Source: Sipunculus nudus
Taxonomy: Eukaryota; Annelida; Sipuncula; Golfingiida; Sipunculidae
Direction: 5' to 3'
Length of the DNA: 64,000 nucleotides
Assembly: GCA_026874595.1 (NCBI GenBank)
Contig: CM049314.1
Span: forward strand, 30,575,729-30,639,728
Numbering within the stretch: the first letter of the stretch is position 1; each line of letters starts with the position of its first letter. Positions 1 to 54,437 of this stretch are shown in pieces. The position numbers and the translations under genes were made by a program. A model generated the notes under the pieces. The model saw nothing but the letters and a program-made list of their open reading frames with translations, was not told the origin of the DNA and searched no databases.

Positions 1-698
1 TGGTCTCAATCTTGAGTCACTTTGTCTGTGTGTCCGTCTGTTTCTCAGTTGTCCTCAAATTCGCTTGCTTGCCGGTTCTTGCGTCTCACATATAGCATTC
101 TACAGGCCACAGTTTTGAAAGAATCCTTTTGAAACTATTACATCTTATGTCTTACACTAATATCTCGAAACCGATTTTTCATTTTCCAGAATTGGCCGCT
201 AGGGGGCGGTGCACTCAAACTTGCACAACATATCATTTTTTGGCCATATCTCCAAAACTATTAACCTCATTTACATAAATTATAGCTTATTATCTTCCTC
301 TTAGGTTTCTTCATAACATGATTAAGTCATCTGTTCTCAATCTTGGGTCAGTTTGTTTGTCTGTTTGTCAGTTGTCCTCAATTTCGCCTGCTTCCTGGTT
401 CTTGCGTCTCACATGTAGCATTCTACTGGCCACAGTTTTGCAGGAATCGTTTTGTAAATTACACTTGTCATATATCGTGATGATATGTGGAAGTCCTATG
501 TTTATTTTTCAAATAAGTCAAAGGTCAAGGTCAAGGTGATCAAAATATATCAAAATCTTATTTTCTTTAGAACTTTGTTAATATTGCTTCTTTCTTCACA
601 AACTATGGATTATTTTCTTTCACTTTGACACTGCTCGTTCATCTGACTAATTTTACATCATTTCCGGCAAGCGCGTGACCTCAGGTCATCTAGTTTGT
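1..698 (+). repeat. A and B modules, near-identical copy of 6191-6888
   Basis: An A monomer (CTCF-like motif at 194-211) is followed by a B module ending in CTAG at 690-693. The segment matches 6191-6888 with only a few substitutions, for example near positions 131, 172 and 343. The match stops at the TGTT/TGTC tract. The 6,190-bp offset suggests a larger duplicated block in the left part of the array. Confidence 0.85.
330..693 (+). mobile_element. B module with predicted element 3' end
   Basis: The module starts with a diverged A-like sequence (TTCTTGCGTCTCACATGTAG) and contains AAAGGTCAAGGTCAAGG. It ends with TTTCCGGCAAGCGCG, the palindrome TGACCTCAGGTCA and CTAG. A short hairpin just before CTAG is the 3' end layout known for Helitrons (CTRR). 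The same end recurs once per 1.75-kb unit. Assignment to Helitron/Helentron is inference; the recurrence is seen directly. Confidence 0.5.
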
Positions 699-872
699 TT
701 GTTGCTTGCCGGAAATCTTCGATTTCTGCAAGCAGGTTGGTCAGTCGCGGATGTCTGTTTGTCTGTTTGTTGCTTGCCGGAAATCTTCGATTTCGGCAAG
801 CATGTTCGTCAGTTGCGTATGTCTGTTTGTCTCTTTGTTTGTTTGTTTGTTTGTTTGTTTGTTTGTTTGTTT
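699..872 (+). repeat. Hairpin minisatellite (2 copies) and (TTTG)n tract
   Basis: There are two tandem copies of a unit of about 75 bp, TTGCTTGCCGGAAATC - TTC - GATTTCTGCAAGCA plus GGTTGGTCAGTCGCGGATG, each ending in TGTTTGTC. The second copy has GGCAAGCATG, giving a near-perfect long stem. A pure TTTG run of about 45 bp follows. Open frames here (runs of S-V-C-L-F-V) are only the tetranucleotide read as codons. Confidence 0.85.
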
Positions 873-1208
873 GTCACGACTCTCCAGGTCACACTTTTGC
901 ATCAATCAACTTGAAACTTACAGGCTTGATTGACAAACCGATTTCTAGGTGCCCTATTGTTTTTGGTCAACATTGCGCCAAGGTCAAGGGTCAAGGTCAC
1001 GACAGGTATGGTTAACGGTTTTTGCACTATAACTTCGCCATAAATAGGCTTATCCACTTCTGCAATAGCTCATTTTTTTCGTCATCACCTGGCCTTTCTT
1101 TTGACATGTAGCTTACTTAAATTTGCCGTTACCATGGTTACATTTTTTGGGCAAAAATCACGGAAATTGGAAATAACACGACCATTTTTTGTAACTTTGT
1201 CAGTTTTT
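873..1208 (+). repeat. Diverged C module of the left edge
   Basis: This is recognisable as module C by the GGTCACACTTTTGCATCAATC stretch, the AAGGTCAAGGGTCAAGGTCA half-site cluster (about 969-995) and GTTACCATGGTTAC at 1128-1141. It is clearly older than the C modules of the central array. It leads directly into the 148-bp satellite, in the place where other C modules carry a single copy of the homologous segment. Confidence 0.75.
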
Positions 1209-2392
1209 AAGCTAGGCAGATCTAGTTTTCGGCATTTTGTTCCACATGACCAGCTTGACACGACAGAACTGAAAGTCACGCCAAATCTCGCGCCATATCT
1301 CGTCAAACGAGAAAAAACGAGACTTCGCGGAAATGCTTATAACTCGGCGACTTTTACAGCTAGACAGGTCTGGTTTTCAGCATTTCGTTCCACCAAAGAA
1401 GCTTGACACGACAGAGCTGCAAGACAGGCCAAATCTCGCACCGTATCTCGTCAAACGAGAAAACACGGGATTTCACGGAAATGCTTATAACTGGGCCAGT
1501 TTTACAGCTAGACACGTCTGGTTTTCGGCATTTAGTTCCACTAGACCAGCTTGACACGACAGATATGTAAGTGCCGTTACCATGGTAACATTTTTTGGGC
1601 AAAAATCATGGAAATTGGAAATAACACGACCATTTTTTGTAACTTTGTCAGTTTTTAAGCTAGGCAGATCTAGTTTTCGGCATTTTGTTCCACATGACCA
1701 GCTTGACACGACAGAACTGAAAGTCACGCCAAATCTCGCGCCATATCTCGTCAAACGAGAAAAAACGAGACTTCGCGGAAATGCTTATAACTCGGCGACT
1801 TTTACAGCTAGACAGGTCTTGTTTTCGGCAGTTCGTTCCACCAAACAAGCTTGACACGACAGAGCTGCAAGACAGGCTAAATCTCGCACCGTATCTCGTC
1901 AAACGAGAAAACACGGGATTTCACGGAAATGCTTATAACTGGGCCAGTTTTACAGCTAGACACGTCTGGTTTTCGGCATTTAGTTCCACTAGACCAGCTT
2001 GACTCGACAGATATGCAAGTCTGGCAAAATCTCGCACCGTATCTCGTCAAACGAGAAAACACGAAATTTCACGGAAATGCTTATAACTCGGCCAGTTTTA
2101 CAGCTAGACAGGTCTGGTTTCCGGTATTTCCTTCCACATGACCAGCTTGACACGATAGATGTGCAAGTCAGGCCAAATCTCGCACCCTATCTCGTCAAAC
2201 GAGAAAACACGAGATTTCACGGAAATGCTTAGAACTCGGCGAGTTTTACAGCTAGACAGGTCTAGTTTTCGGCATTTCATATCATTTGGCCAGCTTGACA
2301 TGACAAACCTGAAAACGTCTCACTGCTTCTTGTCAAACGAGATTAACGGGATTTCATGAAAAAATTTTGAACTTGGTCCCTTTTACACTAGA
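1209..2392 (+). repeat. 148-bp satellite, first tract (about 7 copies)
   Basis: The words CAGCTAGACA and TCGTCAAACGAG recur at 148-bp spacing (CAGCTA at 1357, 1505, 1805, 1953, 2101, 2249). Each monomer carries TCTCGTCAAACGAGA, a palindrome with 6-bp arms and a CAA loop. An interruption at about 1571-1660 re-inserts the GTTACCATGGTAAC and CATTTTTTGGGCAAAAATCA portion of module C, so 1572-1880 repeats 1125-1432. The monomer is homologous to a segment present only once in ordinary C modules (for example 7240-7370). Confidence 0.9.
1576..1589. promoter_or_regulatory. RFX X-box-like perfect palindrome
   Basis: GTTACCATGGTAAC is a perfect 14-bp palindrome and fits the RFX X-box consensus (GTNRCC, short spacer, RGNYAC). 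The same form is at 4773-4786. Central modules have the palindrome GTAACCATGGTTAC (for example 7157-7170, 8937-8950), and c2 modules have GTTACCATGGTTAC (10577-10590). There is one per C module, always about 150 bp after the AGGTCA cluster. Confidence 0.4.
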
Positions 2393-2552
2393 AAGATATG
2401 TAGCTGTTAAAGGTCAGCATGCATAAATAAACATATTATCCGTTTCTGCTGCCCCCACAATGTTGCTCATTCATATGACTGTTTCTACATGCATCTCTGT
2501 CTATCTGTCTGTATCTTTTCCATTTCCGGCAAGCGCGTGACCTCTGGTCATC
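2393..2552 (+). repeat. Short linker with element-end variant
   Basis: This linker repeats at 4326-4490. It contains TTTCCGGCAAGCGCGTGACCT and CTGGTCATCTTG, in which the usual CTAG terminus reads CTTG. An A/B backbone is lacking between this end and the preceding satellite. Confidence 0.6.
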
Positions 2553-2810
2553 TTGTTGCTTGCCGGAAATCTTCGATTTCGGCAAGCATGTTCGTCAGTT
2601 GCGTATGTCTGTTTGTCTTTTTGTTTGTTTGTTGCTTGCCGGAAATCTTCGATTTCGGCAAGCATGTTCGTCAGTTGCGTATGTCTGTTTGTCTCTTTGT
2701 TTGTTGCTTGCCGGAAATCTTCGATTTCGGCAAGCATGTTCGTCAGTTGCGTATGTCTGTTTGTCTCTTTGTTTGTTTGTTTGTTTGTTTGTTTGTTTGT
2801 TTGTTTGTCA
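2553..2810 (+). repeat. Hairpin minisatellite (3 copies) and (TTTG)n tract
   Basis: There are three copies of the TTGCTTGCCGGAAATCTTC unit, all of the GATTTCGGCAAGCATG subtype. In this subtype the two halves pair over about 14 bp with a single-base bulge. Spacers between copies are TGTTTGTC/TTTG runs of differing length. A TTTG run follows. Confidence 0.88.
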
Positions 2811-3142
2811 CGACTCTCCAGGTCACACTTTTGCATCAATCAACTTGAAACTTACAGGCTTGATTGACAAACCGATTTCTAGGTGCCCTATTGTTTTTGG
2901 TCAACATTGCTCCAAGGTCAAGGGTCAAGGTCACGACAGGTATGGTTAACGGTTTTTGCACTATAACTTCGCCATAAATAGGCTTATCCACTTCTGCAAT
3001 AGCTCATTTTTTTCGTCATCACCTGGCCTTTCTTTTGACATGTAGCTTACTTAAATTTGCCGTTACCATGGTTACATTTTTTGGGCAAAAATCACGGAAA
3101 TTGGAAATAATACGACCATTTTTTGTAACTTTGTCAGTTTTT
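2811..3142 (+). repeat. Diverged C module, second copy
   Basis: This is a copy of 877-1208 at an offset of 1,934 bp with only scattered base changes (for example GCTCCAAGG for GCGCCAAGG near 2909). It carries GTTACCATGGTTAC at 3062-3075 and the AGGTCA half-site cluster. Confidence 0.85.
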
Positions 3143-4325
3143 AAGCTAGGCAGATCTAGTTTTCGGCATTTTGTTCCACATGACCAGCTTGACACGACAG
3201 AACTGAAAGTCGCGCCAAATCTCGCGCCATATCTCGTCAAACGAGAAAAAACGAGACTTCGCGGAAATGCTTATAACTCGGCGACTTTTACAGCTAGACA
3301 GGTCTGGTTTTCGGCATTTCGTTCCAACAAACAAGCTTGACACGACAGAGCTGCAAGACAGGCCAAATCTCGCACCGTATCTCGTCAAACGAGAAAACAC
3401 GGGATTTCACGGAAATGCTTATAACTGGGCCAGTTTTACAGCTAGACACGTCTGGTTTTCGGCATTTAGTTCCACTAGACCAGCTTGACACGACAGATAT
3501 GCAAGTGCCGTTACCATGGTTACATTTTTTGGGGGCAAAAATCATGGAAATTGGAAATAACACGACCATTTTTTGTAACTTTGTCAGTTTTTAAGCTAGG
3601 CAGGTCTGGTTTCCGGCATTTCCCTTCCACATGACCTGCTTGACACGACAGAACTGAAAGTCACGCCAAATCTCGCGCCATATCTCGTCAAACGAGAAAA
3701 AACGAAACTTCGCGGAAATGCTTTTAACTCGGCGACTTTTACAGCTAGACAGGTCTGCTTTTCGGCATTTCGTTCCACCAAACAAGCTTGACACGACAGA
3801 GCTGCAAGACAGGCTAAATCTCGCACCGTATCTCGTCAAACGAGAAAACACGGGATTTCACGGAAATGCTTATAATTGGGCCAGTTTTACAGCTAGACAC
3901 GTCTGGTTTTCGGCATTTAGTTCCACTAGACCAGCTTGACTCGACAGATATGCAAGTCTGGCAAAATCTCGCACCGTATCTCGTCAAACGAGAAAACACG
4001 AAATTTCACGAAAATGCTTATAACTCGGCCAGTTTTACAGCTAGACAGGTCTTGTTTCCGGCATTTCCTTCCCCATGACCAGCTTGACACGATAGATGTG
4101 CAAGTCAGGCCAAATCTCGCACCCTATCTCGTCAAACGAGAAAACACGAGATTTCACGGAAATGCTTATAACTCGGCGAGTTTTACAGCTAGACAGGTCT
4201 AGTTTTCGGCATTTCATATCATTTGGCCAGCTTGACATTACAAACCTGAAAACGTCTCACTGCTTCTTGTCAAACGAGATTAACGGGATTTCATGAAAAA
4301 TTTTGAACTTGGTCCCTTTAACACT
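3143..4325 (+). repeat. 148-bp satellite, second tract (about 7 copies)
   Basis: This tract has the same organisation as 1209-2392. TCGTCAAACGAG occurs near 3234, 3382, 3685, 3834, 3982, 4130 and 4268, with an identically placed interruption carrying GTTACCATGG at 3510. The two tracts therefore arose by duplication of a block of about 1.93 kb after the 148-bp expansion. Confidence 0.9.
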
Positions 4326-4489
4326 AGAAAGATATGCAGCTGTTAAAGGTCAGCATGCATAAATAAACATATTATCCGTTTCTGCTGCCCCCACAATGTT
4401 TCTCATTCATATGACTGTTTCTACATGCACTCTCTGTCTATCTGTCTGTATCATTTCCATTTCCGGCAAGCGCGTGACCTCTGGTCATC

Positions 4490-5059
4490 TTGTTTGTTTG
4501 TCTGTCTGTCTGTCTGTCTGTGTACTCTCTACAGGCCACAATTTTCCAGCAATTGCTTTCAAACTTATACAGCTAGTAGACAAGCAAAAGTCCTGGAGGC
4601 CTATTGTTTTTGGGCATTATAGGTCAAATGTCAAGGTCAAGGTCATCAAAAGTATACAAAACGGTTTTTTGTTCATATCTGTGTTAATATTGGTCGTATC
4701 TACTTCAACAGTAGCTCATTTTAATCGTCATTCCAAGGCCTGTCTTCTGGTGTGTAGCTGACTCAATTTGCGGTTACCATGGTAACGCATTTTTGGGGAA
4801 AAGTGCTGATATTTTTCTAAATTTGTCAGTTTTAAAGCTACAGAGGTCTAGTTTTTTTGCTTCAGGTAGCATTCACCTAGTACTACAAGATTCTATTAAG
4901 AGTCTCGCAATATCTCGTATAATATCTCGTCAAACGAGATATTTCGAGATTTCAGTAATCTTGCCCTGGAGGCCACAGTTTTGCAGGAATCTTTTTGAAA
5001 CTGGCATATCTTAAGTCCTACACTATTATCTCGAAATCAATTTTTCATTTTTTTAATTC
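4490..5059 (+). repeat. C module, old subtype c0
   Basis: The module begins with (TGTC)n and contains GGTCAAATGTCAAGGTCAAG, the perfect palindrome GTTACCATGGTAAC (4773-4786) and the TCGTCAAACGAGATATT palindrome. Its diagnostic variants (GCATTATAGGTCAAATG, TGTTCATATCTGTG, CTACTTCA) are shared with 53029-53599 at the other edge of the array and not with the central units. Confidence 0.82.
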
Positions 5060-6480
5060 GGCCGCTAGGGGGCGCTGGGTGCAAACCTCTCCAACATATC
5101 ATGTTTTGGCAATATCTCCAAACTTATAAGCCTCAATTACAAAAACTATAGTTTATTTTTTTCCTCTAAGTCTTCTTCATGAACTCGGTTAGTCATCTGG
5201 TCTCAATCTTGTGTCACTTTGTCTGTGTGTCCGTCTGTTTCTCAGTTGTCCTCAAATCCGCTAGCTTGCCGGTTCGTTCGTCTCACATATAGCATTCTAC
5301 AGGACACAGTTTTGAAAGAATCTTTTTAAAACTATTACATCTTATGTCTCACACTAATATCTCGAAACCGATTTTTCATTTTCCAGAATTGGCCGCTAGG
5401 GGGCGGTGCACTCAAACTTGCACAACATATCATTTTTTGGCCATATCTCCAAAACTATAAACATCATTTACATAAACTATAGCTTATTTTCTTCCTCTGG
5501 GTCTTTCAAAAAACCTGGTGTATTCATTTGGTCTCAATCTTGAGTCACTTTGTCTGTGTGTCCGTCTGTTTCTCAGTTGTCCTCAAATCCGCTTGCTTGC
5601 CGGTTCTTGCGTCTCACATATAGCATTCTACAGGCCACAGTTTTAAAAGAATCCTTTTAAAACTATTACATCTTATGTCTTACACTTATATCTCGAAACG
5701 GATTTTTCATTTTCCAGAATTGGCCGCTAGGGGGCGGTGCACTCAAACTTGCACAACATATCATTTTTTGGCCATATCTCCAAAACTATAAACCTCATTT
5801 ACATAAACTAAAGCTTATTTTCTTCCTCTGGGTCTTTACAAAAACCTGGTGTATTCATTTGGTTTCAATCTCGAGTCACTTTGTCTATGTGTCCGTCTGT
5901 TTCTCAGTTGTCCTCAAATTCGTTTGCTTGCCGGTTCCTGCGTCTCACATATAGCTTTCTTCAGGCCACAGTTTTGAAAGAATCCTTTTAAAACTATTAC
6001 ATCTTATGTCTTACACTAATATCTCGAAACGGATATTTCATTTTCCAGTATTGGCCGCCAGGGGGCGGTGCACTCAAACTTGCACAACATATCATTTTTT
6101 GGCCATATCTCCAAAACTATAAACATCATTTACATAAACTATAGCTTATTTTCTTCCTCTGGGTTTTTCCAAAAACCTGGTGTATTCATTTGGTCTCAAT
6201 CTTGAGTCACTTTGTCTGTGTGTCCGTCTGTTTCTCAGTTGTCCTCAAATTCGCTTGCTTGCCGGTTCTTGCGTCTCACATATAGCATTCTACAGGCCAC
6301 AGTTTTGAAAGAATCCTTTTAAAACTATTACATCTTATGTCTTACACTAATATCTCGAAACGGATTTTTCATTTTCCAGAATTGGCCGCTAGGGGGCGGT
6401 GCACTCAAACTTGCACAACATATCATTTTTTGGCCATATCTCCAAAACTATTAACCTCATTTACATAAATTATAGCTTAT
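5060..6480 (+). repeat. Tract of 331-bp A monomers
   Basis: GGCCGCTAGGGGGCG recurs at 5060, 5391, 5722, 6053 and 6384, exactly 331 bp apart. Each monomer holds TTGAGTCACTTTGTC, GTTCTTGCGTCTCACATA, a conserved CACAGTTTTGAAAGAATC, the CTCF-like motif and GGCCATATCTCCAAAACTAT. This is the purest A tract in the window and gives the cleanest monomer length. Confidence 0.93.
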
Positions 6481-6883
6481 TATCTTCCTCTTAGGTTTCT
6501 TCATAACATGATTAAGTCATCTGTTCTCAATCTTGGGTCAGTATGTTTGTCTGTTTGTCAGTTGTCCTCAATTTCGCCTGCTTCCTGGTTCTTGCGTCTC
6601 ACATGTAGCATTCTACTGGCCACAGTTTTGCAGGAATCGTTTTGTAAATTACACTTGTCATATATCGTGATGATATGTGGAAGTCCTATGTTTATTTTTC
6701 AAATAAGTCAAAGGTCAAGGTCAAGGTGATCAAAATATATCAAAATCTTATTTTCTTTAGAACTTTGTTAATATTGCTTCTTTCTTCACAAACTATGGAT
6801 TATTTTCTTTCACTTTGACACTGCTCGTTCATCTGACTAATTTTACATCATTTCCGGCAAGCGCGTGACCTCAGGTCATCTAG
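6481..6883 (+). repeat. B module
   Basis: This is near-identical to 291-693. It carries the AAAGGTCAAGGTCAAGG cluster near 6709 and ends TTTCCGGCAAGC - TGACCTCAGGTCA - CTAG, with CTAG at 6880-6883. Confidence 0.85.
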
Positions 6884-7462
6884 TTTGTCTGTCTGTCTGT
6901 CTGTGTACTCTCTACAGGCCATAATTTTAAGGCAATTGCCTTATAACTTATACAGCTGGTAGACAAGCAAAAGTCCTCGGGGCCTATTGTTTTTGGGCAG
7001 TACAGGTCAAAGGTCAAGGTCAAGGTCATCAAAAGTTCTCAAAACGGTTTTTTCTTCATATCTTTGTCACTATTAGTCGTATCTTCTTCAAACATAGCTC
7101 ATTTTAAACGTCATTCCAAGGCCAGTCATCTGGTGTGTAGCTGACTCAAATTTGCCGTAACCATGGTTACGAATTTTTGGGAAAAAGTCATGATATTCTG
7201 AAATAAGGGGTCTTATTTTTCTAACTTTGTCAGTTTTAAAGCTAGAGAGGTCTAGTTTTTTGCATCAGGTAGCATTTAACAAGTACTGCAAGATTTTATT
7301 AAAATTCTCGCGATATCTCGTACAATATCTCGTCAAACGAGATATTTCGAGATTTCAGTAATCTTGCCCTGAAGGCCACAGTTTTGCAGGAATCTTTTTG
7401 AAACTGACATATTGAAAATCCTACACTATTATCTCGAAAACAATTTTTCATTTTTTTAATTC
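6884..7462 (+). repeat. C module, subtype c1, without block D
   Basis: The module opens with (TGTC)n directly after CTAG. It has AGGTCAAAGGTCA at 7004-7016, GTAACCATGGTTAC at 7157-7170 and a 10-bp-arm palindrome (arms 7324-7333 and 7337-7346, loop CAA). The sequence is almost the same as the c1 modules of the central array (for example 8660-9240), but it follows a B module instead of block D. It may be the ancestral arrangement. Confidence 0.85.
7324..7346. repeat. Conserved 10-bp-arm palindrome of module C
   Basis: AATATCTCGT-CAA-ACGAGATATT is a perfect inverted repeat with a 3-base loop. It recurs in most C modules, and its core is in every 148-bp satellite monomer. It is broken by single changes in some copies, for example TCGTCAAAGGAG in c3 (12501, 17633) and TCGTGAAACGAG in c5 of copies 2 and 3 (21119, 30102). 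Confidence 0.7.
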
Positions 7463-7970
7463 GCCCGCTAGGGGGCGCTGGGTGCAAACCTCTCCAACAT
7501 ATCATGTTTTGGCAATATCTCCAAAATTATAAGCCTCAATTACAAAAACTATAGTTTATTTTTTTCCTCTAAGTCTTCTTCATGAACTCGTTTAGTCATC
7601 TGGTCTCAATCTTGTGTCACTTTGTCTGTGTGTCTGTTTCTCAGTTGTCCTCAAATCCGCTTGCTTGCCGGTTCTTGCGTCTCACATATAGCATTCTACA
7701 GGCCACAGTTTTGAAAGAATCTTTTTAAAACTATTACATCTTATGTCTTACACTAATATCTCGAAACGGATTTTCCATTTTCCAGAATTGGCCGCTAGGG
7801 GGCGCTGCACATGACCCTCACACACATATCATCATATTGGCCATATCTCTAAAACCCAAAGACTCAATTACATAAACCATAGCTTATGTTCTTCGTCTGA
7901 GTCTTCTCCATAACCTGGTTAAGTCATCTGGTCTCGGTCTTGTGTCACTTTGTCAGTATGTCCATATAAA
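7463..7970 (+). repeat. A monomers leading into the central array
   Basis: CTCF-like motifs lie at 7463-7480 (GCCCGCTAGGGGGCGCTG, one substitution in the usual GGCC) and 7790-7807. From about 7555 the sequence matches the end of the supra-unit (21672-22087), so this is the left border of the high-identity central array. Confidence 0.8.
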
Positions 7971-8377: not shown

Positions 8378-8690
8378 AATTGCTCGCCGGAAATCTTCCA
8401 TTTCTGCAGGCAGGTTGGCCAGTCGCAAATATCTGTTTATTGCTTGCCGGAAATCTTCGATTTCTGCAAGCAGGTTGGTCAGTCGCGGATGTCTGTTTGT
8501 CTGTTTGTTTGTTTGTTGCTTGCCGGAAATCTTCGATTTCTGCAAGCAGGTTGGTCAGTCGCGGATGTCTGTTTGTCTGTTTGTTTGTTGCTTGCCGGAA
8601 ATCTTCGATTTCTGCAAGCAGGTTGGTCAGTCGCGGATGTCTGTTTGTCTGTTTGTTTGTTTGTTTGTCTGTCTGTCTGTCTGTGTACTC
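8378..8690 (+). repeat. Hairpin minisatellite, 4 copies, plus TGTT/TGTC tract (copy 1, D1)
   Basis: Four tandem units start with TTGCTTGCCGGAAATCTTC (the first reads TTGCTCGCCGG), then GATTTCTGCAAGCAGG and TTGGTCAGTCGC. TGTTTGTC spacers of different lengths separate them, and (TGTC)n leads into module C. The half-sites TGCTTGC/GCAAGCA and AAATC/GATTT make each unit a hairpin. Confidence 0.9.
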
Positions 8691-10168: not shown

Positions 10169-10289
10169 CAATTGCTTGCCGGAAATCTTCCATTTCTGCA
10201 GGCAGGTTGGCCAGTCGCAAATCTCTGTTTATTGCTTGCCGGAAATCTTCGATTTCTGCAAGCAGGTTGGTCAGTCGCGGATGTCTGTT

Positions 10290-10324
<35 letters not shown>

Positions 10325-14139: not shown

Positions 14140-14290
14140 CAGTTTTACAGCTAGAGAGGTCTAGTTTTTTGCATCAGGTAGCATTTAACAAGTACTGCAA
14201 GATTTTATTAAAATTCTCGCAATATCTCCTATAATATCTCGTCAAACGAGATATTTCGAGATTTCAGTAATCTTGCCCTGGAGGCCACAG
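14140..14290 (+). other. Mosaic c4/c1 recombination junction
   Basis: Left of about 14160 the sequence is c4-type (GGGGCCTTATTTTTC, TTTGGCAGTTTTACAG). GATTTTATTAAAATTCTCGC is c1-type, AATATCTCCTATAATATC is c4-type again, and CAGTAATCTTGCCC onward is c1-type. The alternation shows the switch was not a single clean crossover. Confidence 0.75.
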
Positions 14291-40625: not shown

Positions 40626-40660
<35 letters not shown>

Positions 40661-43600: not shown

Positions 43601-46600
43601 CTTGAAACAGATTTTCATTTTCCAGAATTGGCCGCCAGGGGGCGGTGCACTCAAACTTGCATAACGTATCATTTTTTGGCCATATCTCCAAACTATTAAC
43701 TTCATTTACATAAATTATAGCTTATTATCTTCCTCTTAGGTTTCTTCATAATATGATTAATTCACCTGTTCTCATTCTCGGGTCAGTATGTTTGTCTGTT
43801 TGTCAGCTGTCCTCAATTTCGCCTGCTTCCTGGTTCTTGCGTCTCACATGTAGCATTTTACTGGCCACAGTTTTGCAGGAATCGTTTTGTAAATTACACT
43901 TGTCATATATCGTGATGATATCTGGAAGCCCTATGTTTATTATTCAAATAAGTTAAAGATCAAGGTCAAGGTGATCAAAATATATCAAAATCTTATTTTC
44001 TTTAGAACTTTGTTAATATTGCTTCTTTCTTCACAAACTATGGATTATTTTCTTTCACTTTGACACTGCTCGTTCATCTGACTAACTTTACATCATTTCC
44101 GGCAAGCGCGTGACCTCAGGTCATCTCGTTTGTCTGTCTGTCTGTCTGTGTACTCTCTACAGGCCACCATTTTAGGGCAATTGCCTTTAAACTTATACAG
44201 CTGGTAGACAAGTAAAAGTCCTGGAGGCCTATAGTTTTTGAGCGATATAGGTCAAAGGTCAAGGTCAAGGTCATCAAAACTTCTCAAAACGGTTTTTTCT
44301 TCATATCTTTGTCGCTATTAGGCGTATCTTCTTCAAACATAGCTCATTTTAAACGTCATTCCAAGGCCCGTCATCTGGTGTGTAGCTGACTCAAATTTGC
44401 CGTAACCATGGTTACGAATTTTTGGGAAAAAGTCATGATTTTCGAAAATAAGGGGCCTTATTTTTCTAACTTTGGCAGTTTTACAGCTAGAGAGGTCTAG
44501 TTTTTTGCATCAGGTAGCATTTAACAAGTACTGCAAGAATTTTTCATAGGTTTCGCAATATCTCCTATAATATCTCGTCAAACGAGATATTTCGAGATTT
44601 CAGTAGTCTTGCCCTGGAGGCCACAGTTTTGCAGGAATCTTTTGGAAACTGACATATCGTAAGTCCTACACTATTATCTCGAAACCATTTTTCCATTTTT
44701 TTAATGCAGCCGTTAGGTGGCGCTGTATGCAAACCTCCCCAACATATCATGTTTTGGCCATATCTCCAAAACTGTGAGCCTCAATTACATAAACTATAGC
44801 TTATTTTCATCCTCTGAGTCTTTTCTAAATCCTGGTGTATTCATTTGGTCTCAATCTTGAGTCACTTTGTCTGTGTGTCCGTCTGTTTCTCAGTTATCCT
44901 CAAATTCGCTTGCTTGCCGATTGTTGCGTCTCATATATAGCATTCTACAGGCCACAGTTTTGAAAGAATCCTTTTAAAACTATTACATCTTATGTCTTAC
45001 ACTAATATCTCGAAACCGATTTTTCATTTTCCAGAATTGGCCGCTAGGGGGCGGTGCACTCAAACTTGCACAACATATCATTTTTTGACCATATCTCCAA
45101 AACTATAAACATCATTTACATAAACTATAGCTTATTTTCTTCCTCTGGGTCTTTCCAAAAACCTGGTGTATTCATTTGGTCTCAATCTTGAGTCACTTTG
45201 TCTGTGTGTCCGTCTGTTTCTCAGTTGTCCTCAAATTCGCTTGCTTGCCGGTTCTTGGGTCTCACATATAGCATTCTACAGACCACAGTTTTGAAAGAAT
45301 CCTTTTCAAACTATTACATCATATGTTTTACACTAATATCTCGAAACCGATATTTCATTTTTCAGAATTGGCCGCTAGAGGGCGGTGCACTCAAACTTGC
45401 ACAACATATCATTTTTTGACCATATCTCCAAAACTATTAACCTCATTAACATAAACTTTAGCTTATTATCTTCCTCTGAGGTTTTTTCCATAACATGATT
45501 AAGTCATTTGTTCTCAATCTTGGGTCAGTTTGTCAGTATGTTTGTCTGTTTGTCAGTTGTCCTCAATTTCGCCTGCTTCCTGGTTCTTGCGTCTCACGTG
45601 TAGCATTCTACTGGCCACAGTTTTGCAGGAATCGTTTTGTAAATTACACTTGTCATATATCGTGATGATATCTGGAAGTCCTATGTTTATTATTCAAATA
45701 AGTCAAAGGTCAAGGTCAAGGTGATCAAAATATATCAAAATCTTATTTTCTTTAGAACTTTGTTAATATTGGTTCTTTCTTCACAAACTATGGATTATTT
45801 TCTTTCACTTTGACACTGCTGGTTCATCTGACTAACTTTACATCATTTCCGGCAAGCGCGTGACCTCAGGTCATCTAGTTTGTTTGTTTGTCTGTCTGTG
45901 TACTCTGTACAGGCCACAATTTTGCAGCAATTGCTGTCAAACTTACACAGCTGGTAGATAATCAAAAGTCCTGGAGGCCTATTGTTTTTGGGCAATATAG
46001 GTCAAAGGTCAAGGTCAAGGTCATCAAAACTTCTCAAAACGGTTTTTTCTTCATATCTTTGTCACTATTAGTCGTATCTTCTTCAAACATAGCTCATTTT
46101 AAACGTCATTTCAAGGCCTGTCATCTGGTGTGTAGCAGTCTCAAATTTGCCGTAACCATGGTTACGAATTTTTGGGGAAAATCATGATATTCGAAAATAA
46201 GGGGCCTTATTTTTCTAACTTTGGCAGTTTTACAGCTAGAGAGGTCTAGTTTTTTGCATCAGGTAGCATTCAACAAGTACTGCAAGACTGATTTATAAGT
46301 CTAGCGATATCTCGTATAATATCTCGTCAAACGAGATATTTCGAGATTTCAGTAGTCTTGCCCTGGTGCCACAGTTTTGCTGGAATCTTTTTGAAACTGA
46401 CATATCATTGGTCCTACACTATTATCTCGAAAAGTTTTTCTATTTTCTGAATGCGGCCACTAGGGGGCGCTGTATGCAAATCTCCCTAACATACCATGTT
46501 TTGGCCATATCTCCAAAACTGTAAGCCTCAATTACATAAACTATAGCTGATTTTCTTCTTCTGGGTCTTTCCAAACACCTTGTGTATTCATTTGGTCTCA

Positions 46601-46880
46601 ATCTTGAGTCACTTTGTCTGTGTGTCCGTCTGTTTCAAAGTTGTCCTCAAATCCGCTTCTTTGCCGGTTCTTGCGTCTCACATATAGCATTCTACAGGGC
46701 ACAGTTTTGAAAGAATCCTTTTAAAACTATTATATCTTATGTCTTACACTAACATCTCAAAACCGATTTTTCCATTTCCAGAATTGGCCGCTAGGGGGCG
46801 GTGCACTCAAACTTGCACAACATATCATTTTTTGGCCATATCTCCAAAACTATAAATCTCATTTACATAAACTATAGCTT

Positions 46881-47621
46881 ATTTTCTTCCTCTGGGTCTT
46901 TCCAAAACCTTGTGTATTCATTTGGTCTCAATCTTGAGTCACTTTGTCTGTGTGTCCGTCTGTTTCTCAGTTGTCCTCAAATTCGCTTGCTTGCCGGATC
47001 TTGCGTCCCACATAAAGCACTCTACAGGGCACAGTTTTGAAAGAATCCTTTTAAAACTATTACATCTAATGTCTTACACTAATATCTCGAAACCGATTTT
47101 TCATTTTCCAGATATGGCCACTAGGGGGCGGTGCACCCAAACTTCCACAACATATCATTTTTTGGCCATATCGCCAAAACTATTAATCTCATTTACATAA
47201 ACTATAGCTTATGTTCTTCTTCTGAGGTTTCTCCATCACATGATTAAGTCAACTGGTCTCAATCTTGGGTCAGTTTGTCAGTATGTTTGTCTGTTTTTCA
47301 GTTGTCCTTAATTTCGCCTGCTTCCTGGTTCTTGCGTCTCACATATACCATTCTACTGGCCACAGTTTTGCAGGAATCGCTTTGTAACTTACACTTGTAA
47401 TATTTCGTAACGATATCTGGAAGGCCTATGTTTATTATTCAAATAAGTCAAAGGTCAAGGTCAAGGTGAGCAAAACGTATCAATTTTTTTTTCTTCAGAA
47501 CTTTGTTAATATTCATCCTATTTTTACAAACTAGGGATTATTTTCTTTCACTTTGGCATTGCTCATTCATCTGACTAACTTTACATCATTTCCGGCAAGC
47601 GCGTGACCTCAGGTCATCTAG
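46881..47621 (+). repeat. Diverged A and B modules right of the young array
   Basis: An A monomer with GGCCACTAGGGGGCGGTG at 47116-47133 is followed by a B module ending in CTAG at 47618-47621. Many private changes against the central modules (for example CTTTGTAACTTACACTTGTAA and TTCATCCTATTTTTAC) show this is an older copy. Confidence 0.85.
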
Positions 47622-47842: not shown

Positions 47843-49567
47843 GTACTCTCTACAGGCCACAATTTTCCAGCAATTGCTTTCAAACTTATACAGCTGGTAG
47901 AAAAGCAAAAGTCCTGGAGGCCTATTGTTTTTGGGCAATATAGGTCAAAGGTCAAGGTCAAGGTCATCAAAAGTATACAAAACGGTTTTTTCTTCATATC
48001 TTTGTTACTTTTAGGGATATCTTCTTCAAACATAGCTCATTTTAAAGGTCATTCCCAGGCCTTTCTTCTGGTGTGTAGCTCTTTCAAATTGGCCGTTACC
48101 ATGGTTACGAATTTTTGGGAAAAAATCATGATATTCGAAAATCTGGGGTCTTATTTTTCTAACTTTTTCATTTTTAAAGCTAGAGAGGTCTAGTTTTTTG
48201 CATCAGGTAGCATTTAACAAGTACTGCAAGATTTTATTGAAAGTCTCGCGATATCTCGTATAATATCTCGTCAAACGAGATATTTCGAGATTTCAGTAAT
48301 CTTGCCCTGGAGGTTACAGTTTTGCAGGAATCTTTTTGAAACTGACATATCGTAAGTCCTACACTATTATCTCGAAATCAATTTTTCATTTTTTTAATTC
48401 GGCCGCTAGGGGGCGCTGGGTGCAAACCTCTCCAACATATCATGTTTTGGCAATATCTCCAAAACTGTGAGCCTCAATTACATAAACTATAGCTTATTTT
48501 CATCCTCTGAGTCTTTCTGAATCCTGGAGTAGTCATTTCGACTCAATCTTGAGTCACTTTGTCAGTGTGTCCGTCTGTTTCTCAGTTGTCCTCAAATCCG
48601 CTTGCTTGCCGGTTCTTGCGTCTCACATATAGCGTTCTACAGGACACAGATTTGAAACAATCCTTTTCAAACTATTACATCTTATGTCTTACACTATTAT
48701 CTCGAAACCGATTTTTCATTTTCCAGAATTGGCCGCTAGGGGGCGGTGCACTCAAACTTGCACAACATATCATTTTTTGGCCATATCTCCAAAACTATAA
48801 ACCTAATTTACATAAACTATAGCTTATTTTCTTCCTCTGGGTCTTTCAAAAAACCTGGTGTATTCATTTGGTCTTAATCTTGAGTCACTTTGTCTGTGTG
48901 TCCGTCTGTTTCTCAGTTGTCCTCAAATCCGCTTGCTTGCCGGTTCTTGCGTCTCACATATAGCATTCTACAGGCCACAGTTTTGAAAGAATCCTTTTAA
49001 AACTATTACATCTTATGTCTTACACTAATATCTCGAAACGGATTTTTCGTTTTCCAGAATTGGCCGCTAGGGGGCGGTGCACTCAAACTTGCACAACATA
49101 TCATTTTTGGCCCTTTCTCCAAAACTATAAACCTCATTTACATAAACTACAGCTTATTATCTTCCTCTGAGGTTTCTTCATAACATGATTAAGTCATCTG
49201 TTCTCAATCTTGGGTCAGTTTGTCAGTATGTTTGTCTGTTTGTCAGTTGTCCTCAATTTCGCCTGCTTCCTGGTTCTTGCGTCTCACATGTAGCATTCTA
49301 CTGGCCACAGTTTTGCAGGAATCGTTTTGTAAATTACACTTGCCATATATAGTGATGATATCTGAAAGTCCTATGTTTATTATTCAAATAAGTCAAAGGT
49401 CAAGGTCAAGGTGACCAAAATATATCAAAATCTTATTATCTTTAGAACTTTGTTAATATTGGTCCTTTCTTCACAAACTATGTATTATTTTCTTTCACTT
49501 TGACACTGCTCGTTCATCTGACTAACTTTACATCATTTCCGGCAAGCGCGTGACCTCAGGTCATCTA

Positions 49568-49568: not shown

Positions 49569-49609
<41 letters not shown>

Positions 49610-51331
49610 GTACTCTCTACAGGCCACAATTTTCCAGCAATTGCTTTCAAACTTATACAGCTGGTAGACAAGCAAAAGTCCTCAGGGCCTATTGTTTTTG
49701 GGCAATATAGGTCAAAGGTCAAGGTCAAGGTCATCAAAAGTATACAAAATGGTTTTTTCTTCATATCTTTGTTACTTTTAGGGATATCTTCTTCAAACAT
49801 AGCTCATTTTAAAGGACATTCCCAGGCCTTTCTTCTGGTGTGTAGCTCTTTCAAATTGGCCGTTACCATGGTTACGAATTTTTGGGAAAAAATCATGATA
49901 TTCTGAAATAAGGGGTCTTATTTTTCTAACTTTGTCATTTTTAAAGCTAGAGAGGTCTAGTTTTTTTGCATCAGGTAGCATTTAACAAGTACTGCAAGAT
50001 TTTATTAAAAGTCTCGCGATATCTCGTATAATATCTCGTCAAACGAGATATTTCGAGATTTCAGTAATCTTGCCCTGGAGGTTACAGTTTTGGTGGAATC
50101 TTTTTGAAACTGACATATCGTAAGTCCTACACTATTATCTCGAAATCAATTTTTCATTTTTTCAATTCGGCCGCTAGGGGGCGCTGGGTGCAAACCTCTC
50201 CAACATATCATGTTTTGGCAATATCTCCAAAACTGTGAGCCTCAATTACATAAACTATAGCTTATTTTCATCCTCTGAGTCTTTCTGAATCCTGGAGTAG
50301 TCATTTCGACTCAATCTTGAGTCACTTTGTCAGTGTGTCCGTCTGTTTCTCAGTTGTCCTCAAATCCGCTTGCTTGCAGGTTCTTGCGTCTCACATATAG
50401 CGTTCTACAGGACACAGTTTTGAAAGAATCCTTTTCAAACTATTAAATCTTATGTCTTACACTATTATCTCGAAACAGATTTTTCATTTTCCAGAATTGG
50501 CCGCTAGGGGGCGGTGCACTCAAACTTGCACAACATATCATTTTTTGGCCATATCTCCAAAACTATAAACCTAATTTACATAAACTATAGCTTATTTTCT
50601 TCCTCTGGGTCTTTCAAAAAACCTGGTGTATTCATTTGGTCTCAATCTTGAGTCACTTTGTCTGTGTGTCCGTCTGTTTCTCAGTTGTCCTCAAATCCGC
50701 TTGCTTGCCGGTTCTTGCGTCTCACATATAGCATTCTACAGGCCACAGTTTTGAAAGAATCCTTTTAAAACTATTACATCTTATGTCTTACACCAATATC
50801 TCGAAACGGATTTTTCATTTTCCAGAATTGGCCGCTAGGGGGCGGTGCACTCAAACTTGCACAACATATCATTTTTTGGCCATATCTCCAAAACTATAAA
50901 CCTCATTTACATAAACTACAGCTTATTATCTTCCTCTGAGGTTTCTTCATAACATGATTTAGTCATCTGTTCTCAATCTTGGGTTAGTTTGTCAGTATGT
51001 TTGTCTGTTTGTCAGTTGTCCTCAATTTCGCCTGCTTCCTGGTTCTTGCGTCTCACATGTTGCATTCTACTGGCCACAGTTTTGCAGGAATCGTTTTGTA
51101 AATTACACTTGTCATATATCGTGATGATATCTGGAAGCCCTATGTTTATTATTCAAATAAGATCAAGGTCAAGGTGATCAAAATATATCAAAATCTTATT
51201 TTCTTTAGAACTTTGTTAATATTGCTTCTTTCTTCACAAACTATGGATTATTTTCTTTCACTTTGACACTGCTCGTTTATCTGACTAACTTTACATCATT
51301 TCCGGCAAGCGCGTGACCTCAGGTCATCTAG
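49569..51331 (+). repeat. Basic unit of the right edge (C, A x3, B)
   Basis: About eight TGTC repeats open the unit. The half-site cluster is at 49709, A motifs are at 50169, 50499 and 50830, and CTAG is at 51328-51331. The B module has lost several bases of the AAAGGTCAAGG cluster near 51160. Confidence 0.87.
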
Positions 51332-53029
51332 TTTGTCTGTTTGTCTGTCTGTGTACTCTCTACAGGCCACAATTTTGCAGCAATTGCTTTTAAACTTACA
51401 CAGCTGATAGACAAGCAAAAGTCCTCGAGGCCTATTGTTATTGGGCGACATAGGTCCAAGGTCAAGGTCAAGTTCATCAAAACTTCTCAAAACGGTTTTT
51501 TCTTCATATCTTTGTAACTGTTAGTGGTATCTTCTTCAAACATAGCTCATTTTAAACGTCATTCCCAGGCCTTTCTTCTGGTGTGTAGCTCTTTCAAATT
51601 TGTCGTAACCATGGTTACGCATTTTGGGGAAAAAGTCATGATATTCTGAAATAAGGGGTCTTATTTTTCTAACTTTGTCCGTTTTAAAGCTAGAGAGGTC
51701 TAGTTTTTTGCATCAGGTAGCATTTAACAAGTACTGGAAGATTTTATTAAAAGTCTTGCGATATCTCGTATAATATCTCGTCAAACGAGATATTTCGAGA
51801 TTTCAGTAATCTTGCCCTGGAGGCCACAGTTTTGCAGGAATCTTTTTGAAACTGGCATATCTTAAGTCCTACACTATTATCTCGAAATCAATTTTTCATT
51901 TTTTTAATTCGGCCGCTAGGTGGCGCTGTATGCAAACCTCTCCAACATATCGTGTTTTGGCAATATCTCCAAAATTATAAGCCTCAATTACAAAAACTAT
52001 AGTTTATTTTTTCATCTAAGTCTTCTTCATGAACTCGTTTAGTCATCTGGTCTCAATCTTGTGTCAATTTGTCTGTGTGTCCGTCTGTTTCTCAGTTGTC
52101 CTCAAATCTGCTTGCTTGCCGGTTCTTGCGTCTCACATATAGCATTCTACAGGACACAGTTTTGAAAGAATCCTTTTAAAACTATTACATCTTATGTCTT
52201 ACACTAATATCTCGAAACCTATTTTTCATTTTCCAGAATTGGCCGCTAGGGGGCGCTGCACTCAAACTTGCACAACATATCATTTTTTGGCCATATCTCC
52301 AAAACTATAAACCTCATTTACATAAACTATAGCTTATTTTCTTCCTCTGGGTCTTTCCAAAATTCTGGTGTATCCATTTGGTCTCAATCTTGAGTCACTT
52401 TGTATGTGTGTTCGTCTGTTTCTCAGTTGTCCTCAAATTCGCTTGCTTGCCGGTTTTTGCGTCTCACATATAGCATTCTACAGGCCACAGTTTTGAAAGA
52501 ATCCTTTTAAAACTATTACATCTTATGTCTTACACTAATATCTCGAAATCGATTTTTCATTTTCCAGAATTGGCCGCCAGGGGGCTGTGCACTCAAACTT
52601 GCACAACATATCATTTTTTGGCCATATCTCCAAAATTATTAACCTCATTTACATAAACTATAGCTTATTCTCTTCCTCTGAGGTTTTTACATAACATGTT
52701 TACGTCATCTGTTCTCAATCTTGGGTCAGTTTGTCAGTATGTTTGTCTGTTTGTCAGTTGTCCTCAATTTCGCCTGCTTGCCGGTTCTTGCGTCTCACAT
52801 GTAGCATTCTACTGGCCACAGTTTTGCAGGAATCGTTTTGTAAATTACACTTGTCATATATCGTGATGATATCTGGAAGTCCTATGCTTATTATTCAAAT
52901 AAGTCAAAGGTCAAGGTCAAGGTGATAGAAATATATCAAAATCTTATTCTCTTTAGAACTTTGTTAATATTGGTTCTTTCTTCACAAACTATATCATTTC
53001 CGGCAAGCGTGTGACCTCAGGTCATCTAG
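51332..53029 (+). repeat. Basic unit of the right edge with shortened B module
   Basis: Module C is diverged (GGTCCAAGGTCAAGGTCAAG near 51452). A motifs are at 51911 (GGCCGCTAGGTGGCGCTG), 52241 and 52572. The B module lacks about 55 bp between CACAAACTAT and ATCATTTCCGGC near 52992. CTAG is at 53026-53029. Confidence 0.85.
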
Positions 53030-54437
53030 TCTGTTTGTTTGTCTGTCCGTCTGTCTGTCTGTGTACTCTCTACAGGCCACAATTTTCCAGCAATTGCTTT
53101 CAAACTTATACAGCTAGTAGACAAGCAAAAGTCCTGGAGGCCTATTGTTTTTGGGCATTATAGGTCAAATGTCAAGGTCAAGGTCATCAAAAGTATGCAA
53201 AACGGTTTTTTGTTCATATCTGTGTTAATATTGGTCGTATCTACTTCAGCAGTAGCTCATTTTAATCGTCATTCCAAGGCCTGTCTTCTGGTGTGTAGCT
53301 GACTCAATTTGCGGTCACCATGGTAACGCATTTTTGGGGAAAATCGCTGATATTTTTCTAAATTTGTCAGTTTTAAAGCTACAGAGGTCTAGATTTTTGC
53401 TTTAGGTAGCATTCACCTAGTACTACAAGATTCTATTAAGAGTCTTGCAATATCTCGTATAATGTCTCGTCAAACGAGATATTACCAGATTTCAGTAATC
53501 TTGCCCTGGAGGCCACAGTTTTGCAGGAATCTTTTTGAAACTGACATATCGTAAGTCCTACACTATTATCTCGAAATCAATTTTTCATTTTTCGAATTCG
53601 GCCGCTAGGGGGCGCTGGGTGCAAACCTCTCCAACATATCATGTTTTGGCAATATCTCCAAAATTATAAGCCTCAATTACAAAAACCACAGTTTATTTTT
53701 TTCCTCTAAGTCTTCTCCATAAACTCGTTTAGTCATCTGGTCTCAATCTTGTGTCACTTTGTCTGTGTGTCCGTCTGTTTCTCCCTTGTCCTCAAATCCG
53801 CTTGCTTGCCGGTTCTTGCGTCTCACATATAGCATTCTACAGGCCACAGTTTTGAAAGAATCTTTTTAAAACTATTACATCTTATGTCTTACACTAATAT
53901 CTCGAAACCGATTTTTCATTTTCCAGAATTGGCCGCTAGGGGGCGGTGCACTCAAACTTGCACAACATATCATTTTTTGGCCATATCTCCAAAACTATTA
54001 ACCTCATTTACATAAACTATAGCTTATTATCTTCCTCTGAGGTTTTTTCAGAATATGATTAAGTCATCTGTTCTCAATCTTGGGTCAGTTTGTCAGTATG
54101 TTTGTCTGTTTGTCAGTTGTCCTCAATTTCGCCTGCTTCCTGGTTCTTGCGTCTCACATGTAGCATTCTACTGGCCACAGTTTTGCAGGAATCGTTTTGT
54201 AAATTACACTTGTCATATATCGTGATGATATCTGGAAGTCCTATGTTTATTATTCAATAAGTCAAAGGTCAAGGTCAAGGTGATAAAAATATATCAAAAT
54301 CTTATTTTCTTTAGAACTTTGTTAATATTGGTTCTTTCTTCACAAACTATGGATTGTTTTCTTTCACTTTGACACTGCTCGTTCATCTGACTAACTTTAC
54401 ATCATTTCCGGCAAGCGCGTGACCTCAGGTCATCTAG
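53030..54437 (+). repeat. Last unit of the array, c0 subtype
   Basis: This unit is C (c0 subtype, matching 4490-5059), A x2 (motifs at 53600 and 53931) and a full B. It ends at CTAG 54434-54437. Position 54438 onward is not array sequence. The module C start CTGTCTGTGTACTCTC is absent after this end. Confidence 0.88.
54408..54437 (+). mobile_element. Terminal 3' end of the array: palindrome plus CTAG
   Basis: TTCCGGCAAGCGCG is followed by TGACCTCAGGTCA and then T-CTAG. After it the sequence becomes unique (TTTGTTTTTCAGTTCAGG). The host base following CTAG is T. Helitrons characteristically end in CTRR preceded by a small hairpin and are followed by T. The signature fits, but the stem is short (5 bp around a 3-base loop). 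Confidence 0.5.

What the first reader, a model, noticed from the sequence alone, without database searches (positions are those of the whole stretch)
194..53948. About 80 same-strand CTCF-like motifs in a satellite: a possible invertebrate DXZ4-type architectural array
Each 331-bp A monomer carries an 18-base word almost equal to the animal CTCF core, always on the + strand. The c3, c4 and c5 variants (CCACTAGATGGCGCTG, CCGTTAGGTGGCGCTG, CCACTAGGGGGCGCTG) change only in ways known CTCF sites tolerate. The human DXZ4 macrosatellite is an established precedent for a tandem CTCF-binding repeat. Dozens of co-oriented sites in 50 kb would be expected to act as a strong one-sided loop anchor or boundary. 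Binding and function are inference.
Basis: partly seen in the sequence, partly recalled or inferred. Interest (0 to 1): 0.82.

Follow-up and report, generated by a model that had tools for sequence, protein, structure and literature searches.

The report
Jumping-DNA array packed with CTCF-like sites
A 58,000-base stretch of an unnamed animal genome is a head-to-tail pile-up of what looks like a rolling-circle mobile element whose repeats each carry a near-perfect copy of the sequence that the genome-folding protein CTCF recognises, so this element may be seeding the host genome with ready-made folding sites; binding itself has not been measured.

Summary
In detail: 80 CTCF-like sites of at least 16.5 bits, all on the + strand, exactly one in each of 80 A monomers. 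The array exceeds the window: 89 monomers in 30 blocks. The host has a CTCF gene whose fingers 3-5 match human CTCF at the contact positions, and its genome holds 4,264 CTCF-consensus words against 41 for the reversed control. So the word is a plausible CTCF site. But the object is not a DXZ4-like single locus. Its spacers contain the termini of a non-autonomous Helentron (HINE): 5' subterminal inverted repeat plus partner, GTCT-type microsatellite, central tandem repeats, 3' subterminal repeat, palindrome, CTAG before a T run. The exact 3' end occurs 397 times genome-wide, the commonest CTCF word 967 times. The array is a head-to-tail concatemer; same-strand sites follow from that. Conservation is mixed: matrix-critical columns are unusually constant inside the array, but not among dispersed copies. 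Best reading: a transposon that disperses and amplifies CTCF-type sites; binding and boundary activity are inferred. New variant of a known kind.

The parts
1..54437 (+). Window part of a head-to-tail array of non-autonomous Helentron-like (HINE) units; whole array runs from window -4555 (first 5' module) / -3686 (first A monomer) to 54437
   Evidence: array modules in order; contiguous locus L026 gives the upstream part
193..211 (+). First CTCF-like site in the window (TGGCCGCTAGGGGGCGGTG, 25.2 bits)
53930..53948 (+). Last CTCF-like site in the array
104..425 (+). A monomer, last of a block of 5 that begins at -1220; CTCF-like site inside
428..748 (+). A' module: A-related, the CTCF box replaced by an AGGTCAAGGTCA-type box
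   Evidence: alignment shown for sister copies
664..693 (+). 3' end of a HINE unit: 3' subTIR, palindrome TGACCTCAGGTCA, TCTAG
702..2555 (+). Second HINE family (148/448-bp central repeats), no CTCF site, in the array, copy 1
   Evidence: solitary related copy at L030:1879-3640
2556..4492 (+). Second HINE family, copy 2, directly head-to-tail with copy 1
4970..6615 (+). Block of 5 A monomers, 5 CTCF-like sites
6618..6905 (+). A' module with nuclear-receptor-like box
6854..6883 (+). HINE 3' end
7373..7965 (+). Block of 2 A monomers (second one truncated; unit lacks its 3' end)
8380..8619 (+). 5' subTIR + inverted partner (GCTTGCCGGAAATC TTC GATTTCTGCAAGC and variants), 4 repeats, then TGTC/TGTT microsatellite
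8937..8950 (+). X-box-like palindrome GTWACCATGGTWAC in the B module (name recalled); one search shows one before each A block
9153..9749 (+). Block of 2 A monomers
10172..10263 (+). 5' subTIR + partner, 2 repeats
10793..11782 (+). Block of 3 A monomers
12021..12050 (+). HINE 3' end
12543..13523 (+). Block of 3 A monomers (c3-type site CCACTAGATGGCGCTG at 12635)
13763..13792 (+). HINE 3' end (CTCG variant)
14282..14878 (+). Block of 2 A monomers
15923..16912 (+). Block of 3 A monomers
17673..18653 (+). Block of 3 A monomers
19412..20404 (+). Block of 3 A monomers (c4-type site at 19504)
21162..22082 (+). Block of 3 A monomers (c5-type site at 21251)
23270..23866 (+). Block of 2 A monomers
24906..25895 (+). 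Block of 3 A monomers
26656..27636 (+). Block of 3 A monomers
28395..29387 (+). Block of 3 A monomers
30145..31065 (+). Block of 3 A monomers
32253..32849 (+). Block of 2 A monomers
33893..34872 (+). Block of 3 A monomers
35631..36623 (+). Block of 3 A monomers
37381..38301 (+). Block of 3 A monomers
39489..40085 (+). Block of 2 A monomers
41129..42118 (+). Block of 3 A monomers
42879..43859 (+). Block of 3 A monomers
44618..45610 (+). Block of 3 A monomers
46368..47355 (+). Block of 3 A monomers
47592..47621 (+). HINE 3' end joined directly to the next 5' subTIR at 47622: head-to-tail junction of two units
48311..49300 (+). Block of 3 A monomers
50079..51069 (+). Block of 3 A monomers
51821..52811 (+). 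Block of 3 A monomers
53510..54170 (+). Block of 2 A monomers, end of the array
54408..54437 (+). Terminal HINE 3' end of the array, then TTTGTTTTT and DNA without array modules

Best explanation
The array is a head-to-tail concatemer of a non-autonomous rolling-circle transposon (a HINE, the small form of a Helentron). A full unit is built as 5' inverted-repeat modules, a GTCT-type microsatellite, a B module, two to five 331-bp central repeats (A), an A-related module, then a 3' subterminal repeat, a palindrome and CTAG; some inner units lack the 5' modules or the 3' end (anatomy shown; the rolling-circle origin follows from the family). Every A repeat in the array carries one CTCF-type site in the element's forward direction (shown). 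The host has a CTCF gene with the same core-reading fingers and its genome is rich in the same motif (shown), so the sites are most likely bound wherever the copy is accessible (inferred). Each insertion then brings in a small same-direction cluster of sites, and tandem copying turns it into 89 sites in 58 kb. Under the usual cohesin rule (recalled: forward sites stop cohesin arriving from the right, so loops extend to the right) such a cluster would act as a one-sided loop anchor (inferred). The site probably spreads because it travels with the element, not because the host selected this locus (inferred).
For: Element identity: common 5' and 3' ends at array edges and dispersed copies with differing flanks; the 13-nt 5' GCTTGCCGGAAAT is the exact reverse complement of 3' ATTTCCGGCAAGC; ordered modules and 23 3' ends, 2 of them of a second family; the same substructures define oyster Cg_HINE elements (PMC7492417, passages); 397 exact 20-nt 3' ends against 0 reversed; 143 Helitron_like_N matches in the host, open frames up to 2,426 aa, 0 of 14 control genomes. 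CTCF reading: 80 of 80 monomers; host CTCF gene E 4.9e-109, best PDB hit CTCF 368 bits against 243 for the best other protein, contact residues 4/4 identical in fingers 3, 4, 5 (human fingers recalled); CCASYAGRKGGCRSY 4,264 against 41 reversed and the G-at-6 form used by most A monomers, CCGSYAGRTGGCRSY, 2,332 against 33; of the 100 places listed, 80 do not have the HINE-like word form (whether they lie in repeats was not tested). DNA not picked for the motif: 14 sites against 1 reversed in 152.6 kb, 3 of the 14 in the CTCF gene locus L009. Of the first 100 of 923 A places picked by their flanks and not by the site, all on C1, 99 score 14 bits or more and 93 score 20 or more.
Against: No binding, accessibility, methylation or contact data. 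Conservation of the site is not special among dispersed copies: 188 of 312 windows have as few or fewer changes, critical columns 88 of 312; among 100 copies on C1 changes do not avoid informative columns (rho 0.03), and observed changes are milder than random ones only weakly (P 0.04, or 0.12 when transitions and transversions are matched); decayed copies mostly lose it. Fingers 6 and 7 match human at only 1/4 and 2/4 contact positions. No autonomous partner with the same ends was found at 3 of 143 Helitron places, each read only in part. 70 of 80 sites hold two CpGs and 10 hold one, which could be methylated; array CpG o/e equals the flanks (0.73 against 0.74-0.75). No empty-site test.
Confidence: 0.62

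Rival explanations
1. Silent passenger: the HINE array is young, neutral, packed as heterochromatin or methylated; the CTCF-like word is an inherited piece of the element and is rarely or never bound. (Shares the element identity with the best explanation; odds of the rivals overlap in part and do not sum to 1.)
For: Substitutions in 100 C1 copies ignore matrix information; dispersed-copy ranks 188 and 88 of 312; decayed copies mostly lose the word; another HINE family is nested in the same place.
Against: Inside the array the matrix-critical columns are 3rd lowest of 312 offsets in diversity; of 7 divergent sister copies 6 still score 16.2-22.3 bits, one 13.4; the host genome is rich in the same word; CpG not depleted relative to flanks.
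Confidence: 0.28
2. DXZ4-type architectural macrosatellite: a locus-specific host boundary maintained for its CTCF sites.
For: 89 co-oriented sites in one place; host CTCF present; DXZ4 precedent of same-polarity CTCF sites in a tandem repeat (PMC6985041 section 6).
Against: The unit is a dispersed transposon: 397 exact 3' ends genome-wide, the 100 listed on C1-C5, and 967 exact site words, the 100 listed all on C1; AT-rich, YY1 words tried absent. Conservation of this locus between species was not tested.
Confidence: 0.08
3. The box is read by a different C2H2 zinc-finger protein from the host's large expanded clusters, for example a transposon-silencing factor, and resembles CTCF sites for that reason.
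For: The CTCF-finger query gave 320 matches (a lower bound), many close together on C16, C7, C9, C11.
Against: In the array the variable columns of the box are those that the CTCF matrix tolerates (not so among C1 copies), and the same word occurs at loci without A monomers (14 looked at) and is enriched genome-wide.
Confidence: 0.07
4. Chance resemblance of one ancestral monomer to the CTCF matrix, with no biological meaning.
For: All 80 copies descend from one monomer, so only one event needs explaining; one of 30 shuffled windows held a 21.2-bit site.
Against: Expected about 9e-7 sites of 25.1 bits per monomer; sister families with divergent flanks carry different high-scoring forms.
Confidence: 0.02

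Closest known systems
Cg_HINE / pearl non-autonomous Helentrons of oysters (PMC7492417, passages read)
   Same: 5' subTIR with complementary partner, 4-nt microsatellite such as GTCY, short array of central tandem repeats, 3' subTIR followed by palindrome, oligo-T insertion, tandem copies often truncated at 3'.
   Different: Central repeat is 331 bp (oyster clusters predominantly 140-180 bp), carries a CTCF-type box in every array copy, a sister module has an AGGTCAAGGTCA box in its place, and units form a 58-kb concatemer. 'Insulator' does not occur in that paper, and it is not among papers holding both Helentron and CTCF (none).
DXZ4 macrosatellite (PMC6985041, section 6 read)
   Same: Tandem repeat with CTCF sites of one polarity.
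   Different: DXZ4 is an X-linked macrosatellite with 3-kb CpG-rich units and paired CTCF/YY1; here a dispersed transposon, AT-rich, 331-bp repeats, YY1 words tried absent.
Mammalian TE-borne CTCF sites (PMC9902604 abstract and outline; PMC7520972 and PMC8136502 listing only; rodent B2 SINE recalled)
   Same: Mobile elements that spread CTCF sites through a genome.
   Different: The best-known cases are retrotransposons (recalled); here a rolling-circle DNA transposon that brings several co-oriented sites and can concatemerise.
DINE-1 / HINE satellites of Drosophila (recalled, and mentioned in the passages of PMC7492417)
   Same: Helentron central repeats that also occur as satellite arrays.
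   Different: No CTCF box known to me (recall).

Membership tests
HINE (non-autonomous Helentron) | 5' subTIR with complementary inverted partner | tested here: met
   GCTTGCCGGAAATC-TTC-GATTTC(T/G)GCAAGC
HINE (non-autonomous Helentron) | Microsatellite in the left module, mostly 4-nt units | tested here: met
   TGTT/TGTC/GTCT arrays
HINE (non-autonomous Helentron) | Central tandem repeats | tested here: met
   2-5 A repeats per block
HINE (non-autonomous Helentron) | 3' subTIR followed by a palindrome at the 3' end | tested here: met
   ATTTCCGGCAAGC...TGACCTCAGGTCA TCTAG; 23 in the array (2 of them the second family), and same or diverged forms in L023, L030, L037, L038, L039, L040
HINE (non-autonomous Helentron) | Insertion at oligo-T without target duplication | tested here: inconclusive
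   CTAG/CTTG followed by TTT at the dispersed ends L023, L030, L037, L038 and at the array end, and 5' ends preceded by T-rich DNA in several copies; empty sites not compared
HINE (non-autonomous Helentron) | Autonomous Helitron/Helentron (Rep) in the host | tested here: met
   143 PF14214 matches, long open frames; Helitron and Helentron types were not told apart
HINE (non-autonomous Helentron) | Autonomous partner with the same ends | tested here: inconclusive
   not found at 3 of 143 places, each read only in part
CTCF binding site | High score with the CTCF matrix above shuffled background | tested here: met
   (matrix recalled)
CTCF binding site | Host CTCF with conserved core-reading fingers | tested here: met
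   (fingers 3-5 identical at contact positions; 6-7 only 1/4 and 2/4)
CTCF binding site | Occupied by CTCF in vivo | not testable with these tools
   no ChIP data
CTCF binding site | More conserved than the adjacent monomer | tested here: inconclusive
   (array: critical columns yes, whole window only moderately) against 64, 91, 120 (other copies: no)
DXZ4-type macrosatellite | Macrosatellite at one locus | tested here: not met
DXZ4-type macrosatellite | Paired CTCF and YY1 sites in each unit | tested here: not met
   0 of 80 for GCCATNTT, AANATGGC and AAGATGGCGGC (words recalled); the 5-base core GCCAT alone is in 57 of 80
DXZ4-type macrosatellite | Orientation-dependent domain boundary | not testable with these tools
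   no Hi-C

The most novel reading that the evidence does not exclude
A rolling-circle transposon family has become a main vehicle for spreading CTCF sites in this animal: hundreds of insertions, each delivering a co-oriented cluster, with concatemers such as this one forming instant strong one-sided loop anchors; its modules carry the CTCF box or, at the same place, nuclear-receptor-type words, and an X-box-type word besides, making it a mobile regulatory cassette.
Probability: 0.3. Interest if true: 0.78.

Novelty: new variant of a known kind. Interest (0 to 1): 0.52.

Why it matters
TE-spread CTCF sites are established in mammals (PMC9902604, abstract); whether invertebrate genome folding is rewired in the same way is open, and directional CTCF logic is hardly documented in spiralians (PMC10658182, passages: no motif directionality identified in the squid study). 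An element that multiplies co-oriented sites by tandem copying would give natural cluster-size series (2, 5, 89 sites) inside one genome to test how site number and direction set loop strength. No paper in the library searched holds both 'Helentron' and 'CTCF'; 'Helitron' with 'CTCF binding site' gave 2 papers, neither about this by title and abstract start.

Tried and rejected
DXZ4-type locus: rejected as identity because the unit is a dispersed transposon. Chance match: rejected. Selection on every copy: not supported. Plain satellite: replaced by HINE because of shared ends. Search for an autonomous partner's ends: L044, L045 and L046, each only part of a Helitron place, gave none. Rfam: no match in the window at the gathering score. 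Control window for conservation (1,900 places) mixes a sister family, and 17 of the 100 listed rows came without letters, so it was not used as a rate comparison. A third control window, the word CCACTAGGGGGCGCTG and the count of CCGSYAGRGGGCRSY did not complete, so the HINE share of all CTCF words is unknown. A DNA-similarity search for the monomer did not complete, nor was a host-identity search. The paper PMC3491479 is not held. Of the 24 exact CCACTAGATGGCGCTG places, 4 are in the window, 14 were looked at and 6 were not fetched.

Full report
What was checked. The CTCF matrix (MA0139.1, counts recalled) gives 80 + strand and no - strand sites at 12 bits or more in the window; all 80 score at least 16.5 bits. 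Thirty shuffled windows held on average 0.57 sites of 14 bits or more on both strands, at most 2; the best single one reached 21.2 bits. The A monomer search lists 81 rows; 80 hold exactly one site, and the 81st is a tail cut by the window start. The named variants are there. The same-strand arrangement is not separate evidence: it follows from head-to-tail repetition.

Where it lies. Fetching upstream DNA shows that the array begins before the window: 89 A monomers in 30 blocks, first A at window -3686, last ending at 54170. Upstream of it a NACHT-LRR reading frame stops at L026:5336, about 110 bases before the first terminal module; beyond the window a copper monooxygenase-like frame lies on the other strand.

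What it is. The spacers between A blocks are not random. Reading array edges and dispersed copies side by side shows shared ends with differing flanks: a 5' module GCTTGCCGGAAATC-TTC-GATTTC(T/G)GCAAGC and a 3' end ATTTCCGGCAAGC...TGACCTCAGGTCA-TCTAG followed by TTT. The 5' 13-mer is the exact reverse complement of the 3' subterminal 13-mer. In order, a full unit reads: one to six 5' modules, TGTT/TGTC microsatellite, B module, A x 2-5, A' module, 3' end. Some inner units lack the 5' modules or the 3' end. [quoted passage not shown] The host has 143 Helitron_like_N matches with open frames up to 2,426 aa; 0 of 14 control genomes do. The exact 20-nt 3' end occurs 397 times (257 forward, 140 reverse, control 0); the 100 places listed lie on C1 to C5. 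So the array is best read as a concatemer of a mobile element. A second HINE family with 148-bp repeats sits in it twice (window 702-4492), and a related copy stands alone at L030:1879-3640.

Is the word a CTCF site for this host? At helix positions -1, 2, 3 and 6, fingers 3, 4 and 5 are identical to human; finger 6 keeps 1 of 4 and finger 7 keeps 2 of 4. The consensus CCASYAGRKGGCRSY occurs 4,264 times against 41 for the pattern read backwards. Most A monomers have G instead of A at position 6; that form, CCGSYAGRTGGCRSY, occurs 2,332 times against 33. Part of both counts comes from HINEs; of the 100 listed places, 20 have HINE-like words and 80 do not, in 42 distinct words, though the 80 were not tested for lying in repeats. 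Of 24 exact CCACTAGATGGCGCTG places, 4 are in the window; 14 others were looked at (L001-L006, L029-L036) and none has it inside an A monomer; some of these loci are related to each other, and L030 holds a HINE of the second family elsewhere. In 152.6 kb of DNA not picked for the motif there are 14 sites of 14 bits or more against 1 in the reversed sequence; 200 column-permuted matrices gave 1.4 on average and 8 at most; 3 of the 14 lie in the CTCF gene locus L009. I take this as good evidence that CTCF-type words are in use in this genome.

Is the word kept by selection? Mixed. In the array 45 of 312 windows are less diverse than the 19-bp window and 55 have fewer changes on a tree, so it is not the most conserved stretch; for the 12-, 14- and 7-base cores 62, 85 and 17 windows have fewer changes. 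But the 8 columns with at least 1 bit of matrix information rank 3rd lowest of 312 in diversity, with 3 changes against a median of 11. With 44 further copies (35 from other places, 9 from the array's upstream part L026) added to 23 array representatives, 188 of 312 windows have as few or fewer changes, and 88 of 312 for the critical columns; within the stretch covered by all copies, 29 and 12 of 77. In 7 divergent sister copies the window ranks 63 and the critical columns 19 of 151; in 10 decayed copies 156 and 118 of 312. Scores of 65 copies average 22.4 against 17.0 (at most 18.5) when the same number of differences is placed at random, but shared ancestry inflates this, and L037-L043 were fetched because they hold the exact word. 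In the first 100 of 923 places picked by their flanks and not by the site, all on C1, 67 are unchanged, 99 score 14 bits or more, 93 score 20 or more; changes do not avoid informative columns (rho 0.03), and their cost is lower than random only weakly (P 0.04; 0.12 with transitions and transversions matched). So most of these copies carry a working-looking site, without clear purifying selection on each copy; youth may explain it.

How it most likely works. Inferred: where accessible, host CTCF binds the A repeats; an insertion gives 2-5 co-oriented sites, the concatemer 89. By the convergent rule (recalled) sites on the + strand face loops to the right, so the array should stop cohesin coming from higher coordinates. 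CpG content gives no sign of special methylation (o/e 0.73 against 0.74-0.75 in flanks), but the CpGs of the site (two in 70 of 80, one in 10) could be methylated and block binding.

An unexpected detail. The A' module is homologous to A over positions 2-272, but at the place of the CTCF box it has words such as AAAGGTCAAGGTCAAGGTGATC; the B module has the same kind of box and a GTWACCATGGTWAC palindrome. By recall these resemble nuclear-receptor half-sites and the RFX X-box. The element looks like a set of related modules in which the protein-binding box has been exchanged. No matrix test was made for these two.

Known and new. HINEs with satellite-like repeats are known in oysters; TE-borne CTCF sites are known in mammals (PMC9902604, abstract and outline). 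The combination was not found: 0 papers with 'Helentron' and 'CTCF', 2 with 'Helitron' and 'CTCF binding site', not about this by title and abstract start; searches for CTCF with satellite or tandem repeats in molluscs or bivalves gave nothing on point by title and abstract start. The library holds open-licence papers only. I file the element as a probable HINE with open features (empty sites, autonomous partner), the box as a predicted CTCF site, and reject membership in the DXZ4 kind.

Noticed in passing
window 13527-13812 and sister A' and B modules: A-related modules in which the CTCF box is replaced by tandem AGGTCA / TCAAGGTCA words (nuclear-receptor-like, recalled), plus a GTWACCATGGTWAC palindrome (X-box-like, recalled) in the B modules.
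   Followed up: partly
window 702-4492; L030:1879-3640: A second HINE family with 148/448-bp central repeats and no CTCF site, twice in tandem inside the array; a related copy stands alone elsewhere.
   Followed up: partly
G000 C16, C7, C9, C11: Many closely spaced C2H2 zinc-finger reading frames (320 matches to the CTCF-finger query, a lower bound).
   Followed up: no
G000 C1:64.7-67.7 Mb: HINE copies are dense here; within this stretch the listed copies are mostly on - up to about 65.65 Mb (with + at 65.26 Mb) and on + from 65.95 to 67.64 Mb; further along C1 the few listed are on -.
   Followed up: no
L026:3399-5336: NACHT-LRR (NLR-like) frame ending about 110 bases before the array.
   Followed up: partly
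L027:28-618 (-): Copper type II monooxygenase C-terminal frame beyond the window's right end.
   Followed up: no
L006:1498-1550: Two CTCF-like sites 34 bases apart on the same strand (22.7 and 15.5 bits) at a locus without similarity to the array.
   Followed up: no
L037:316-476; L040:341-644, 3011-3149, 4468-4603: Further divergent A-like families carrying other CTCF-like forms (TAGCCACCAGGGGGCGTGG, TAGCCGCCAGATGGCGCTG).
   Followed up: partly
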